From Zancudomyces culisetae (lineage: Eukaryota > Kickxellomycota > Harpellomycetes > Harpellales > Legeriomycetaceae): a DNA stretch of 28,006 nt. Position numbers and translations under genes: made by a program. This document shows positions 1,628 through 20,961 of the stretch, piece by piece. Positions within the stretch are counted from its first letter, which is position 1. Each line of letters starts with the position of its first letter. The stretch spans positions 1-28,006 of the forward strand of contig LSSK01001070.1 in the NCBI GenBank assembly GCA_001969505.1, written 5' to 3'. The notes beneath the pieces were generated by a model. It was not told where the DNA came from. It saw nothing but the letters and a program-made list of their open reading frames with translations, and searched no databases.

Positions 1628-2080
1628 ATGCCAGTACGTAAACAAGATAAGAAAAAGGTTCGACAAATATCACCGCCACCGCCACCACCACCAAAACAGA
1701 AAGAACAACAAAAACAACAGGTAGTAGTACAAATACAGCCATCGAAAAAGAAATGCTATCGACACGCTTGCCTAACATTCCCCATCGCGCGCGTTAAAGA
1801 TTATCTTCATACCAAAACTAAACAAAAATTTAGCGTTCAAAGGACTACTGCAGTCTACCTATGTGCAGTCCTTGAATACTTAACCGCAGAACTTCTGGAA
1901 ATTGCTGGACACTCAGCGCAGCAAAACAAGCTGAAGCGTATCCGTCCCCGAGACATCCAAATAGCAGTTAAAAACGACGAAGAGTTTTCAAAACTACTGA
2001 ATAATACAATTGTACCAGATGGCGGAGTGCTGCCGTGGATACACGATTCTTTGTTGCCCGAAAACTCAAAACAGTGCTAG
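1628..2080 (+). CDS. Divergent histone H2A (variant), intronless
   Basis: A 150-residue histone-fold protein. Residues about 47-145 follow H2A throughout: LTFPIARV, then AVLEYLTAELLEIAG, RIRPRDIQIAVKNDEE and GGVLPWIH. The acidic-patch residues are all present: the three Glu of LEYLTAELLE and the D-E-E of NDEEF. The protein should therefore pair with H2B in the nucleosome. It is far from a canonical H2A. The tail carries a run of seven prolines (about residues 16-22) and a Gln-rich stretch instead of a Gly/Lys/Arg tail, and it lacks a C-terminal SQ motif. The L1 segment between the alpha-1 helix and the VYL motif is one residue longer than in canonical H2A, the length seen in H2A.Z, while the docking region (NNTIVPDGGVLP) is H2A-like. 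A second, canonical H2A is presumably elsewhere in the genome. AATAAA occurs about 130 bases past the stop. Confidence 0.9.
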   Translation: MPVRKQDKKKVRQISPPPPPPPKQKEQQKQQVVVQIQPSKKKCYRHACLTFPIARVKDYLHTKTKQKFSVQRTTAVYLCAVLEYLTAELLEIAGHSAQQNKLKRIRPRDIQIAVKNDEEFSKLLNNTIVPDGGVLPWIHDSLLPENSKQC

Positions 2081-2780: not shown

Positions 2781-4301
2781 ATGAAACGAAGAAATTATGG
2801 ATATTATGGTGTGCAGGATATAACGGCAACAAAGTTTTACGAATCGATCTTGAGGAGCGAAAATTTATACCCAGAAAACATAGGTAGAGGTGGAAATAGC
2901 AATATAGGTATGAGTATGGGGGTGGGGGTGAATATACGTGGAGGGGAGCGCGTGTGGTATGATGAAGGGTCAGCTGAACAAGAGAGCGACCAAAGCATGG
3001 AGGAGAGTCATGAAGAATACGTTTCTAGCGATGGATCGCTAATCAAAAGCTATTATAAGACAAAGGTAAGTATTTTTATCGAGAAACTATGAATAGTACT
3101 AAATATCCGAAAATATAATATAGCAACGAGAACAGGAAAAAATGCAGGAATATTTACGAACCAAAAGAAAATATACAGGGTACGAAGGATCTGAAAAGGA
3201 GCGAGATAACATAAAGAGGGGCGGATCAAGTAGTGGGGGTACGGATAGTAGTGGAAAAGCTGTTTATAGTGGTGAAGAGAGGAAGGGAGGTAGCAATGGG
3301 AGCCAGAGCGATCAAGAGAGGACACCTACAAAGAATCCAAAAAACACCATAATCAACAGTAATGGGCTCATGGACCGATTGTTAAAAGAGAAAGAAGCAA
3401 CAGTAGAACCGGATGATGCGATAAAAAGAGTCAAAAAGTGGTATCTGCAGCCAAGAGGGAATCCCAAAACCGTAAGGCATTTTTTATTATTGATAATGTG
3501 AAAGATGTACTTAACAGTATATTTAACAAATAGAAGGAGATTGGACTGCCTAGAATATGGATTATAGTACTTGGAACTGTTGAGAATAAAAAGGGAAAGC
3601 AATACAGTTGGCATTCATCATATATAAAGGATCGGAAAAGCCCAACCGAAATATTTAGTCATTCAGGAAGTGGGTATGTACTGGAAGGAGAAATGGATGT
3701 GATAGCAAATCTTAAGCAGGGGTTTAGTCTGCAATTCTGCGAGCATTTCAGAAATGGGTTTCCTGAAAATTGGAACACACTAATTCAAGCCGAAATTGAC
3801 AGGATTTTTGAACATTTACAATCTATAAAAGCGAGTAGAGCACAAAATATACTTGGTAAAAAAGCTGAAACTGAATTAAACCCAATGGAAAACGAATCTC
3901 CACAAAATATTGTTCCTCACACTGTAAAAAAACAAAAGCAACAACAGCAACAGCATCAATACCAACAGCACCAACAGCACCAACAGCACCAACAGCAACA
4001 GCATACTCCAAACTTGCGTACAAAGCGAAAAGCCAGAAAGAAAATAACCTATCCGCGAAAATACACCTCTTCGTCAAAGACCCCAATGTCTGTCAAATCT
4101 GTCAGAGCCCTAGAAAGTGTGACCAAACGACTGGGCAAATCTACTCTCGCCTCTTCCTCATCTCCTTCTCCCTCTATTCAAACTGTTACCCGCTACGGCC
4201 GCACTGTAAAATCACCTGGCGATTGGTGGAAATCCGCCTCAACCACCACATCATCACCCAGCCCTGCCAGAATTCTCCCTCGAGGGACGTCTCTTCCATA
4301 A
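2781..4301 (+). CDS. SANTA-domain protein with C-terminal CENP-C-like motif (KNL2/M18BP1-like)
   Basis: Exons 2781-3065, 3124-3471 and 3534-4301 give 466 residues. Both introns are GT-AG at codon boundaries, and TACTAAAT precedes the first acceptor. Exon 3 begins with a SANTA domain (about residues 216-292): W-I-I-V-L-G, then YSWHSSYIKDR, SGSGYVLEGEMD, QGFS and FRNGFPENW. Near the C-terminus (about 431-444) RYGRTVKSPGDWWK fits the CENPC-k / CENP-C motif pattern (R-x-x-R ... P-x-x-W). SANTA plus a CENP-C-like motif is the layout of KNL2/M18BP1 proteins, which bind centromeric nucleosomes and help load CENP-A. The SANTA call is strong from the motifs; the loading role is inferred. Between the two lie a Gln/His repeat and a basic Ser/Thr-rich linker. 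The N-terminal 210 residues are low-complexity and contain no Myb/SANT repeat that I can see. Confidence 0.8.
3944..4003 (+). repeat. CAA/CAG/CAC repeat encoding Gln/His tract
   Basis: Imperfect CAACAGCAC-type triplet repeat inside exon 3 of the SANTA-domain gene. It encodes a Gln-His-rich tract of about 25 residues between the SANTA domain and the CENP-C-like motif. Its length probably varies between strains. Confidence 0.8.
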
Positions 4302-4900: not shown

Positions 4901-6209
4901 ATGAATGAACGGAAAAAAAGTAAACCCGAATTTAATGTACAGCGCATATATTTGGGCAAGTATTGGGTTTCGGTGTGGTACGAATCGGCATATCCGGATG
5001 AATACAGGTCAGCAAAGCAATTGTATATTTGTGAAAAGTGCTTAGTATACATGAAAAGCAAATCCCTATTTTTACAGCACATTGTAAGTCCCTCGCTATC
5101 TCTCTCTTTCTTTTGGTTTTTGTTGTTTTGTTTTTTGTAGGTGGATTATACTAAAATTGAAACTGAAGCTGAAACTCATATCGAAAATAGAGACAATGTG
5201 ACTGCAATTATCCAAGAGGAGAATTGGTATACCAAGATTCAACTTGTCAGGTTTACCAAGTCGACGGAAAAACAGAAAAGGTAACTTCATACTCAACATT
5301 TTTTTTTACTTCATTTCTTTTTTTTAAAAAAAAAAAAGTAAATAAGGATACACATATGTATAAGCTCTACTTTTTATATTTCAAGTGATGGTATCATGTG
5401 TAATTAAATGTGAACAAATAGCTGTACTGTCAAAACCTATGTCTGCTCTCTAAACTGTTTTTGAATCAAAAGACGCTGTTTTATGATATTTCCAACTTTT
5501 TGTTTTATACTCTGTTTCAGAAAACAGACAAGAACCAACACAGTCATAGTCACCACCAAACAAACAACACATTTGGCGTTTCAGACACCTCCCATAGTGG
5601 GTATGCTCACCACCAGTATGGTAAAATGATTGAAGAATGCTTTGAATATACGTTTTTAGGATATTTTTCAAAGGTAAGCATTTTATTCCAACGCCATATT
5701 TAAAAGAATAATAGCAATCTATATTGAATTCGATTATTGTTGAATAGGAAAAAGTTTCAATAGACGGAAATAATTTAGCATGTGTACTGGTATTCCCACA
5801 GTTTCGTGGGCAACATTATGGAACACTGTTGATAGAATTGAGTTATGAAATCAGTAAAATAGAAGGGAAAGTAGGAGGACCTGAAAAACCTTTGTCAGTG
5901 CAAGGATTTTATGCATACAAAATGTACTGGCGATCAGCTATTTTGTCTTATTTGCTAGAAAAACTAGACAGCGGGACAACCAGTGTTTTTGGAATTCAGG
6001 AAATGTCTGTAGATCTGGGAATTTCGATCCAAGATATATTATTTACATTGCAAGATATTGGATTGGTAAAGTATTGGTACCTGGGCAAGAACGTCATGTG
6101 CGTGACAAGACAGGAAATAGTGGACATAATTCAAAAGCTGAAGTTCAAGTTTAAAAAAAGATTGGAGAATAGTGGAGTGGTTTATTGTAACATTAATAAA
6201 GTTAACTGA
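4901..6209 (+). CDS. MYST-family histone acetyltransferase, compact and divergent
   Basis: Exons 4901-5083, 5191-5280, 5422-5673 and 5748-6209 give 328 residues. All junctions are GT-AG in phase 0. The acceptor at 5190 was chosen because only that frame gives the MYST sequence [11 protein letters not shown]...VDGKTEK leading into [14 protein letters not shown]. The C2HC zinc finger has C44, C47, H60 and C64. K108 (in NQKTLFYD) matches the auto-acetylated lysine, C187 (LACVLVFP) the active-site cysteine, and E221 (GGPEKPLS) the general base. MYST enzymes acetylate histone tails from acetyl-CoA in complexes such as NuA4. Oddities: there is no chromodomain or other N-terminal module; a His-rich insertion of about 30 residues precedes GYFSK; and the acetyl-CoA loop reads FRGQHYGT where the family has Q-R-x-G-x-G, so its first Gly is replaced by His. 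It may be a fast-evolving paralogue of Esa1/Sas-type enzymes. Confidence 0.9.
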
Positions 6210-16301: not shown

Positions 16302-17440
16302 TCAAGACATTAGGTGTGTAGTGGATGTCTCTGTCTCCTCTACTCTATTAACGGCTGTGTAGCTTTTGCAGTTTTTAAGACACAAATAAAGATATAAGAG
16401 CGAAATGAACATCCAATACGCAGTATACCCCAGTACCGTTGCCATAGTAGCATTATTTGTCCATCCCAGGAACGATCTGAATACACTCCACCCCAGCTGA
16501 TTTGGGCTTTCGGGGCTACAGCAGTTGAGCATCCTAAAATCAATTTACGTGTGAGTGTGGTTCATTGATGTGTAATTCCTAAATAGCAAATCTTACCAGA
16601 TACTTTTTGGAATATCAAAAATATAGGCTGCATGTACATCCAAGTTTATTTTCTGACTCCATACATAATTCTCCAGAAATTTAATTGAGTTGGTAAACAT
16701 TGCAGCCCCCAGAAACGAAATTAAAATCGTTGAAAATGCCAAAAAGTATAGCATGTTAAGTGACCTCCCAAAGTAGCAAATCGTCAACCCAAGAGACACT
16801 CCTAAAACCACACCTGTAATTATAGACAATGGTATCTCTATAGGCTTTGCCGAAATAACTATTCCTGCACATAGCAATACTGCCTCAACTCCCTCTCGTA
16901 TTATTGCTAAAAAAGACATTACAAAAAACGTGGATCTTATAAAAAACCATCTCTCCTCGTTTTTTGGCGCAGTAGTTTCCCCATTGTTTATCTTTACTGC
17001 AAGTTTTTCTGAGATTTTATACAAACTGAAAAAGGAATATCCAATTAAGATCAAAACCAATGAGGTGATCAGGGAAAGTATCCCCTCCCAAAGGTCTTCA
17101 TGTGCACCCCACATATCGTTAGAAAACTTGAAATATAAAACCATCAGTACTGATTATATATGTAGTACACATGTATATACATGATTATCATCGCTATTAC
17201 GCTTTTATTTATTTATTTTTTAGTAAAAAAAACAAATAAAATACACTTACCAGTTCCCAGAAGAATTGTGGTAAATACACCGCTGGCTGCCCCGGCAAGG
17301 ACCTGCTTTTTCAGTCTTTTCTTAATATTTACATTCTGTTCGTTTAGCTTGTTTATAAATGCAAACATCATTGCAATTAGTAAAGCGGCTTCAGTAGCCT
17401 CTCTTGTAATTACAAAAAACACTTGAAGATTGAATATCAT
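16302..17440 (-). CDS. FTR1: High-affinity iron permease Ftr1
   Basis: Exons 17440-17251, 17149-16597 and 16533-16302 (minus) give 324 residues; GT-AG introns with agreeing phases. Ftr1 is the plasma-membrane Fe(III) permease that works with the Fet3 ferroxidase. It carries two RExxE iron-binding motifs in hydrophobic helices: R13-E-A-T-E17 near the N-terminus and the canonical R148-E-G-V-E152. Other hallmarks are EDLWEGILSLI, the segment ITGVVLGVSLGLTICYFG, and the C-terminal NCC ... GWSVFRSFLGWTNNAT. About seven membrane segments are visible. The first motif reads REATE where most homologues have REGLE; the Arg and both Glu remain. At 324 residues it is shorter than yeast Ftr1, mostly in the C-terminal tail. 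It lies head-to-head with FET3, which supports joint regulation by iron. Confidence 0.95.
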
Positions 17441-18984: not shown

Positions 18985-20961
18985 ATGCTGAGTGGAATTC
19001 TAATAATCTTTTGTTTTTATCTGAAGGTTTACATTGCAAAAAACATTCACCATGACTGGGTGGTTGAATATATTATAGCTAATCCTGACGGATTGTGCGA
19101 AAGGGTGGTGATTGGGGTCAATGGGAAATGGCCGATAGAAACACTGGAAGGTAATGTTGGAGACGTTATTACAGTTAATGCCATGAATAGACTCAATGTT
19201 CCTATTTCACTTCACGCGCATGGGATACGGTTTGACAGCTATCAGTATAGCGACGGTGCATTTTCTGTAAACAATTGGTGAGGGTTCAATTTCTAGAGTG
19301 TTTACAAGTTAGTTCTATAAAAATTTATGTATATCCTGAATGACCTGTAGTGGTGTCCCGCCAGGAATGAACTATACCTATACTATCCCGTTGTCAGAGT
19401 CGGGAACTTATTGGTTTCATTCGCATATTGATGTAATGCACTTTTATTTATTTATCGCAAAATAAATATATCGACCCAAGTAGAACTGGAAAATAACTAC
19501 ACATCTGATATCTGTAAAAAATAGGGACAGTACTCTGATGGGTTACGAACTCCACTTATTGTCCGGGCAGAAAATAATGAAAATTATGTGTATAGTGATG
19601 AGTTTGTACTTACTCTAGCAGGTAAACTAAATATAAAGAGGTCGTTTGTACTCTAACAACAGCAAACAACTAACAACCACTATTCTTGCATAAAAAAAAT
19701 AGAGTGGTTTCATAAGCCTGTGTTTGACATTATTCCATCTCTAGTTAGTTCAAATAATCCTAGTGGATCCGAGCCTATTCCCGATTCTGGAATAATTAAT
19801 GGTGGTGGAATAACCGAGTTCATAGTGAAGCCCAGTACTGTGTACCGAATTAGGTTAATAAATGCCTCCTCGGCTGCTGTTTTTCATGTAAAAGTGGATT
19901 ATCACAAAATGAAAATGATTGAAGTTGATGGTACTGAGATACAAATGGTTACTGCCGAAAGCATTGAAATATCCCCAGGTCAACGAGTTTCCTTCTTGAT
20001 TACAACAAAAAATGATACCAACCATAATTATTTGATTCATGCGGATATGGACCCGGATTATTTTGATTCCGTCCCAGATTATTTACACTTAAATCTGACG
20101 GCAACACTAAAATATTCTGAACTGAGCAACTCCAAAGATCCAGAACCGCACAAATGGAATTCCATACCTGATACAGATTTAAAGCCACTAGATAAAAAGC
20201 AATATAAGGCACCAGACAAAATTATAACGATTGTGAGCGATATCCAGGAAGCTGATGATGGAACTACACGAGGACTGATAAACGGAGTGACTTTTGTACC
20301 CCCAAAGGTCCCAACGCTACTATCAATGCTTTCAATGGGAGAGTTGGCGACAAATCCTGAAGTTTATGGTCCTAAAACAAATGCGTTTGTCGTAGAATAC
20401 AACAAAGAGATTCAAGTAATTATACAAAACGCACATATGGATCCTCACCCATTCCATCTTCATGGACATAAGTTTGAAATTTTGGATGTAGGAGAAGGTG
20501 AGTACAAAACCAAGAATAAGATCTCAACCAATACAACATATGATAATCTGATACGCAGAGATACAGTTAACGTGCCAGGCCAAGGATATGCGGTTATTCA
20601 GTTTACGTCAGATAATCCTGGAGCATGGCTTTTTCATTGCCACAACGTTTGGCATATGCTTTTTGGAATGAGAGCTGTTATAGTCGAGGCACCACTTGAG
20701 GCACAGAGAACCATCAGAAATATCACAGAAAGCGAAAATTCTTTGTGCTTAGCAGCAGGGTTTAAAACTACTGGTAATGGTGGTGGAGGAATAGGATTGG
20801 ATTTATCCGGCGCACCAAATTCACCAAATCTGATAAACTTTGGTATTCATTCAAAGGGAGTGGTAGCACTTGTGTTTTGCGTTCTATCTGCGCTATCAGG
20901 CACATATAGTGTCATAAGTTACATCAGGGCTTTGGTGAAATTGCAGCCGGAGGGCGCTTAA
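18985..20961 (+). CDS. FET3: Fet3-type multicopper ferroxidase
   Basis: Exons 18985-19277, 19351-19432, 19525-19621 and 19703-20961 give 576 residues; phases agree at all three introns. It is a cell-surface multicopper oxidase that oxidises Fe(II) for Ftr1. All four copper motifs are present: H77-A-H79, H121-S-H123, H406-PFHLHGH and H469-C470-H471-NVW-H475. A signal peptide starts the protein and a C-terminal membrane segment (about 542-564) anchors it, as in Fet3. Glu in LAEWFHK matches the ferroxidase Glu185 of yeast Fet3; the position of yeast Asp409 is not an Asp when aligned, though an Asp lies two residues away (HMDPHPF). The axial type-1 position is Met480 (HMLFGM), where yeast Fet3 has Leu; Met usually means a lower copper redox potential. 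It pairs head-to-head with FTR1. Confidence 0.94.

What the first reader, a model, noticed from the sequence alone, without database searches (positions are those of the whole stretch)
2781..4301. SANTA domain plus CENP-C-like motif in one fungal protein: candidate KNL2-type CENP-A loader
The spliced product combines clear SANTA motifs (WHSSYIKDR, SGSGYVLEGEMD, FRNGFPENW) with RYGRTVKSPGDWWK near the C-terminus, which fits the CENPC-k / CENP-C consensus. Plant KNL2 and some vertebrate M18BP1 proteins have this layout; well-studied yeasts load CENP-A without such a gene, and some Mucoromycota lack CENP-A altogether. A copy here would indicate an ancestral centromere pathway kept in this lineage.
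Basis: partly seen in the sequence, partly recalled or inferred. Interest (0 to 1): 0.75.

Follow-up and report, generated by a model that had tools for sequence, protein, structure and literature searches.

The report
Fungal KNL2-type centromere histone loader
An insect-associated fungus carries a protein with the two hallmark parts of the animal and plant factor KNL2/M18BP1, which helps put the centromere-marking histone in place; the protein type is known, but having it in this branch of fungi gives a way to study a pathway that fission yeast lacks.

Summary
The host is Zancudomyces culisetae (Kickxellomycota), not a Mucoromycota. Three exons (2781-3065, 3124-3471, 3534-4301) splice into 466 residues. 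The public record uses the same splices, starts at Met44 and already carries a SANTA label. SANTA is unambiguous (PF09133, 59.1 bits, cut-off 21). The C-terminal RYGRTVKSPGDWWK matches the published KNL2-type CENPC motif; that full pattern arose in 5 of 400,000 shuffles, although the shorter core alone also occurs once by apparent chance elsewhere in the window. The same genome encodes CENP-A (14-residue loop-1 insertion), CENP-C (own canonical motif plus cupin) and Ndc80. Mis18, Scm3, CENP-I and CENP-N gave no match, and the CENP-T profile hit only histones; these exon-by-exon searches had no eukaryotic positive control and do not show absence. Best reading: a KNL2/M18BP1 orthologue that docks on CENP-A nucleosomes through its C-terminal motif, with SANTA as dimerisation or partner domain. 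Function is inferred. SANTA plus CENPC-k in fungi is already in print for chytrids, so this is a new member of a known kind. The adjacent divergent H2A variant gene is the more surprising neighbour.

The parts
2781..3065 (+). exon 1 of the SANTA/CENPC-k gene (start codon could instead be Met44, at 2910)
   Evidence: splice; the record starts at Met44
3066..3123 (+). intron 1, GTAAGT...TAG, 58 nt
   Evidence: junction present in P0001
3124..3471 (+). exon 2
3472..3533 (+). intron 2, GTAAGG...TAG, 62 nt
   Evidence: junction present in P0001
3534..4301 (+). exon 3, carries the SANTA core, Gln/His tract, basic stretch, CENPC-k-like motif and stop
3561..3779 (+). SANTA domain as matched (profile positions 18-91 of 92); the unmatched start of the domain would lie around the exon 2/3 junction (by eye)
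   Evidence: 61.2 bits; 59.1 bits, 6e-16
4191..4232 (+). CENPC-k-like motif RYGRTVKSPGDWWK, residues 431-444
   Evidence: sequence; shuffles; consensus
1628..2080 (+). neighbouring intronless gene for a divergent histone H2A variant (150 aa; keeps the residues I recall as the acidic patch); part only of the novel reading

Best explanation
The gene encodes the Zancudomyces KNL2/M18BP1 orthologue. Shown: a SANTA domain; a C-terminal motif with the arginine anchor, proline and Trp-Trp of the KNL2-type CENPC motif; a strongly basic stretch before it; CENP-A and CENP-C in the same genome. Inferred: R434 inserts into the H2A/H2B acidic patch and W442-W443 read the hydrophobic C-terminal tail (TMI) and loop 1 of CENP-A, which puts the protein on existing CENP-A nucleosomes. 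The basic stretch adds DNA contacts, and SANTA mediates self-association and/or CENP-C contact. Docked this way it would license deposition of new CENP-A through a chaperone not identified here.
For: SANTA 59.1 bits against a 21-bit cut-off; best PDB match is 9r6h Mis18-binding protein 1, 4.5e-5; a nematode SANTA protein, P0002, aligns over the same blocks. R431-Y-G-R434-T-V-K-S-P-G-D-W-W lines up with plant KRSRSGRV/LLVSPLEFW, whose seventh residue (Arg) and Trp are needed for targeting (PMC9210943, passages); with the RxxxxPxxWW core, whose Arg and Trp are needed for nucleosome binding by the CENP-C central region (PMC4830207); and with Xenopus M18BP1 VSRSGRL, read by me from printed primers (PMC13021935, passages; translated). 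Full pattern in 5 of 400,000 shuffles. CENP-A: one gene on C796, histone fold 9.3e-35, 14-residue loop-1 insertion, tail RRIRGTMI where the genome's H3 has RRLRGERS. CENP-C: cupin 79.4 bits, motif RKSKRRRIAPIEYWRNEKVDY. Residues 367-440 hold 18 K/R against 1 D/E; DNA-binding regions are needed besides CENPC-k for targeting of plant alphaKNL2 (PMC11879092, title and passages; restated in PMC13294675).
Against: No close homologue was found: 3 protein searches returned the protein's own record twice and one nematode protein once, so conservation of the DWW motif among fungi is untested. The motif peptide alone finds no kinetochore protein in PDB, and its strict core also occurs once in an unrelated frame of the window. 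The motif lacks the Leu after the proline seen in plant CENPC-k (Gly here). The regulatory serine of Xenopus (S760) is a tyrosine here. AlphaFold models were too poor to test the fold (mean pLDDT 39.6 and 44.8). No SANT/Myb family was listed. Mis18 and Scm3 were not detected.
Confidence: 0.86

Rival explanations
1. It is a SANTA-only KNL2 relative (like plant betaKNL2), and the DWW motif is coincidental or decayed; centromere targeting would run through SANTA and partners.
For: The motif is short, scores nothing on its own, lies near low-complexity sequence, its strict core also turns up once in an unrelated frame, and no fungal relative was available to show conservation. betaKNL2 reaches centromeres without CENPC-k.
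Against: It matches the KNL2-type pattern including the R-x-G-R lead-in, at the expected C-terminal place; 5 of 400,000 shuffles.
Confidence: 0.1
2. It is a SANTA protein with a general chromatin role, unconnected with centromeres.
For: The neighbouring genes are chromatin genes of general kind (H2A variant, MYST acetyltransferase); no localisation data exist.
Against: The SANTA proteins discussed in the passages I saw are KNL2/M18BP1 centromere proteins, and the genome has CENP-A and CENP-C.
Confidence: 0.03
3. The gene model is wrong: exon 3 is a separate transcript, and the motif is not joined to exons 1-2.
For: No RNA-seq was available.
Against: The deposited prediction uses the same two splices; both introns have consensus ends; SANTA core and motif lie together in exon 3 in any case, so their pairing does not depend on the splices. 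Against C659 the exons carry 1 substitution, silent, of 72 over 28,006 bases; against C346 none of 39 over 13,707 bases.
Confidence: 0.03

Closest known systems
Plant alphaKNL2 (Arabidopsis)
   Same: SANTA upstream and CENPC-k near the C-terminus, no SANT domain (PMC13294675, passages)
   Different: SANTA here sits mid-protein after about 200 mostly low-complexity residues; the motif reads RYGRTVKSPGDWW in place of RSGRVLVSPLEFW
M18BP1/KNL2 of non-mammalian vertebrates (chicken, Xenopus)
   Same: SANTA plus a CENP-C-like motif that binds the CENP-A tail, loop 1 and the acidic patch (PMC13021935, passages)
   Different: The vertebrate protein also has a SANT domain and acts with Mis18alpha/beta; neither was detected here, and the conserved Ser two residues before the anchor Arg is Tyr here
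KNL2 with CENPC-k in chytrid fungi (stated in PMC9210943, which cites Kral 2016 and Sandmann 2017)
   Same: Fungal KNL2 with the CENPC-k motif
   Different: Another early-diverging fungal lineage; the chytrid sequences themselves were not seen here
CENP-C (same genome, C242)
   Same: R-x4-P-x2-[aromatic]-W core motif
   Different: CENP-C has the longer motif (RKSKRRRIAPIEYWRNEKVDY) and a cupin; the window protein has neither the cupin nor the end of that motif, and has SANTA instead

Membership tests
KNL2/M18BP1 | SANTA domain (PF09133) | tested here: met
   59.1 bits, cut-off 21, residues 221-293; 9r6h Mis18BP1 in PDB
KNL2/M18BP1 | CENPC-k / CENP-C-like motif near the C-terminus (present in many; missing in eutherians and in plant betaKNL2; shortened in deltaKNL2) | tested here: met
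   R431YGRTVKSPGDWWK444; 5 of 400,000 shuffles; by pattern only, and the peptide alone is not found in PDB
KNL2/M18BP1 | CENP-A present in the organism | tested here: met
   divergent H3 with a loop-1 insertion and its own tail, C796
KNL2/M18BP1 | CENP-C present in the organism | tested here: met
   PF11699 79.4 bits, cut-off 29, C242; 4 of 14 control genomes matched weakly, none over the cut-off; motif read
KNL2/M18BP1 | SANT/Myb domain (vertebrates, C. elegans; absent in Arabidopsis KNL2, so not defining) | tested here: not met
   hmmscan of the 466 aa at E up to 10 lists 4 families, none Myb/SANT; the three besides SANTA are below their cut-offs
KNL2/M18BP1 in a Mis18 complex | Mis18alpha/beta partner in the genome | tested here: inconclusive
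   no match with PF03226, human MIS18A or the S. pombe Mis18 domain; exon-by-exon search, no positive control for this family
KNL2/M18BP1 | Shared fold of SANTA | tested here: inconclusive
   AlphaFold2 mean pLDDT 39.6 and 44.8; no fold search was run on such models
KNL2/M18BP1 | Centromere localisation and need for CENP-A loading | not testable with these tools
   needs microscopy or genetics
CENP-C | C-terminal cupin | tested here: not met
   no cupin family listed for the window protein; the genome's one PF11699 match is on C242

The most novel reading that the evidence does not exclude
This fungus loads CENP-A by a plant-like minimal route (KNL2 plus CENP-C, without Mis18, Scm3/HJURP or most of the CCAN), and the divergent H2A variant encoded 700 bp upstream of KNL2 is a specialised partner of its loop-1-extended CENP-A nucleosome, kept beside the loader as a small centromere-chromatin gene neighbourhood. 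The absences are unproven, and the H2A link rests on position and divergence alone.
Probability: 0.08. Interest if true: 0.78.

Novelty: new member of a known kind. Interest (0 to 1): 0.45.

Why it matters
Fission yeast is stated to lack an M18BP1 orthologue (PMC7618776, passages), and I recall the same of budding yeast, so fungal CENP-A loading is usually told without it. A KNL2 with its nucleosome-reading motif in a kickxellomycete, together with CENP-A and CENP-C, fits the view that the animal/plant-type loader was present in early fungi and later lost in the lineages that became model yeasts. It also names a fungal lineage in which to ask what replaces Mis18 and HJURP, if these are really missing.

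Tried and rejected
Three protein-database searches gave only the protein's own record (7,974 and 10 candidates) and one nematode SANTA protein (596 candidates). The word-based method and the Gln/His tract limit these, so absence of fungal relatives is not shown, and no tree was built.

AlphaFold2 with a 2-row alignment failed twice (mean pLDDT 39.6 and 44.8). I ran no fold search on these models.

The 8 PF15511 (CENP-T) matches were rejected as histones: the three above cut-off, on C232, C449 and C655 a few kb from H3 genes, all read as histone H4, and the five below cut-off lie inside the H3 genes' own coordinates. CENP-I and CENP-N profiles matched nothing; Ndc80 did, which shows only that a strong match within one exon can be found in this genome.

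I considered a repeat or mobile element because SANTA is found three times in the assembly. Rejected: C346, C354 (window) and C659 are 99.6-99.7% identical over their whole overlaps, so they are haplotigs or strain copies of one locus.

Membership in CENP-C was considered and rejected (no cupin; the genome has its own CENP-C).

Full report
What is there. The gene at 2781-4301 (+) has three exons (2781-3065, 3124-3471, 3534-4301) and two short GT-AG introns, and yields 466 residues. A deposited record, 'hypothetical protein AX774_g5672 [Zancudomyces culisetae]', equals residues 44-466 of this model. UniRef already calls it a SANTA domain-containing protein. The host is thus a harpellalean fungus, Kickxellomycota, not a member of Mucoromycota.

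SANTA. hmmscan gives PF09133 at 6e-16, 59.1 bits against a cut-off of 21, residues 221-293; the three other families listed are below their cut-offs. The profile rings three times in the genome, but C346, C354 (the window) and C659 are copies at 99.6-99.7% identity over their whole overlaps. Between window and C659 there are 72 substitutions in 28,006 bases, of which one, silent, falls in the coding exons; between window and C346 there are 39 in 13,707 bases, none in the exons. So this is one locus present as several haplotypes or strains. By sequence the protein finds human Mis18-binding protein 1 in PDB (9r6h, 4.5e-5), and it aligns with a nematode SANTA protein found through a synthetic consensus.

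The C-terminal motif. Residues 431-444 read RYGRTVKSPGDWWK. Published facts used, with what I saw of each paper: PMC4830207 (whole text) gives RxxxxPxxWW as the core whose Arg and Trp are needed for nucleosome binding by the CENP-C central region. PMC9210943 (passages) gives KRSRSGRV/LLVSPLEFW for plant CENPC-k and says that the seventh residue, Arg, and the Trp are needed for targeting. PMC13021935 (passages) says the vertebrate M18BP1 motif contacts the CENP-A tail, loop 1 and the acidic patch, and prints mutagenesis primers from which I read VSR[S760]GRL around the anchor Arg (translated). The window protein keeps R-x-G-R-x4-P-x2-W-W, which is the KNL2 type; the CENP-C of the same genome reads RKSKRRRIAPIEYWRNEKVDYEY. 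Whole-protein shuffles gave the strict core in 60 of 200,000 and the looser core in 338 of 200,000, and the longer R.GR form in 5 of 400,000, or 0 of 400,000 for the C-terminal 166 residues. In 125,852 six-frame residues from 62,946 bases of the genome the looser core R....P..[YFW]W occurs 3 times: here, in CENP-C, and once, with a full WW, in a 75-residue minus-strand frame of the window, which I take to be chance. Against the motif also: the peptide searched alone in PDB finds no kinetochore protein, only matches at E 0.36 or worse such as SH3 domains, and no fungal relative was available to show conservation.

Partners. CENP-A: a single gene on C796, 350 residues from its Met with a tail of 239 before RRYKPG, a histone fold (9.3e-35), a 14-residue insertion in loop 1 and the tail RRIRGTMI; the five canonical H3 matches, over 135-136 of the 136 query residues, are separate. 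CENP-C: one gene on C242 with cupin (79.4 bits) and canonical motif. Ndc80: one match. Not detected: Mis18 or Yippee by three queries, Scm3, CENP-I, CENP-N. The CENP-T profile's 8 matches are histone H4 and H3 genes. The search reads exons singly, and the family searches for Mis18, Scm3, CENP-I and CENP-N rang in no control genome, so these blanks are leads only.

Mechanism, shown and inferred. Shown by sequence: SANTA, the motif, the basic stretch (18 K/R against 1 D/E in residues 367-440), and the presence of CENP-A and CENP-C. Inferred from the vertebrate and plant proteins: acidic-patch anchoring by R434, tail and loop-1 reading by W442-W443, SANTA in dimerisation or CENP-C contact (PMC13294675, passages), and licensing of new CENP-A. 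The Xenopus S760 position is Tyr432 here, so that serine switch is not kept. AlphaFold2 gave no usable model.

Novelty. [quoted passage not shown] Sandmann 2017 was not held, and the Kral text I read reports no fungal M18BP1. So fungal KNL2 with CENPC-k is in print, and the present case adds the Kickxellomycota. My searches for KNL2 with Zoopagomycota, Mis18BP1 with Mucoromycota, and Zancudomyces with kinetochore found no paper; M18BP1 with chytrid, SANTA domain with chytrid, and chytrid with KNL2 and CENP-A each found only PMC9210943; KNL2 with SANTA domain and fungi found three, of which I opened two. Wider searches returned 157, 24 and 1,691 papers, of which 20 each were listed. The library holds open-licence papers only.

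Neighbourhood. Upstream at 1628-2080 (+) is an intronless histone H2A variant of 150 residues. Its core matches the genome's canonical H2A genes at 46-47% identity and, at 42%, an exon that I label H2A.Z-like from the alignment. It keeps the residues I recall as the acidic patch (LEYL..AE..LEI...NDEE) and has a Pro/Gln-rich N-tail. It carries 4 substitutions between window and C659, two of them changing a residue. Downstream lies a MYST-type acetyltransferase (PF01853 at 5748-6206; its start near 4901 is read by eye). I report this as the more unusual feature, with no evidence yet that it is more than adjacency.

Noticed in passing
window 1628-2080 (+): Divergent intronless histone H2A variant (150 aa; 46-47% identical to the genome's own canonical H2A, Pro/Gln-rich tail) directly upstream of the KNL2 gene; present on all three haplotigs, with 2 residue changes in C659 while the KNL2 exons have none.
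   Followed up: partly
window about 4901-6209 (+): MYST-family histone acetyltransferase (MOZ_SAS, 108 bits for 5748-6206) directly downstream; a human MYST enzyme (KAT7) is reported to regulate CENP-A assembly (PMC4906249, title and abstract start in a search listing only), so H2A variant, KNL2 and HAT form a run of three chromatin genes.
   Followed up: partly
L010 562-1683 (C796): CENP-A candidate with an N-terminal tail of about 240 residues and a 14-residue Gly-rich loop-1 insertion.
   Followed up: partly
contigs C346, C354, C659: The window locus is assembled three times at 99.6-99.7% identity, while CENP-A, CENP-C and Ndc80 each ring at one place: uneven redundancy in the assembly (mixed ploidy, heterokaryon or strain mixture).
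   Followed up: partly
window 16593-17153 (-) and 19657-20961 (+): Ftr1-type iron permease and a multicopper oxidase, probably a Fet3/Ftr1 high-affinity iron uptake pair.
   Followed up: no
P0002 (Anisakis simplex): Nematode SANTA protein with two SANTA-like stretches; it ends in LRRSGRFIK, which looks like the start of a CENPC-k motif, possibly cut off by the end of a 5.4 kb contig.
   Followed up: no
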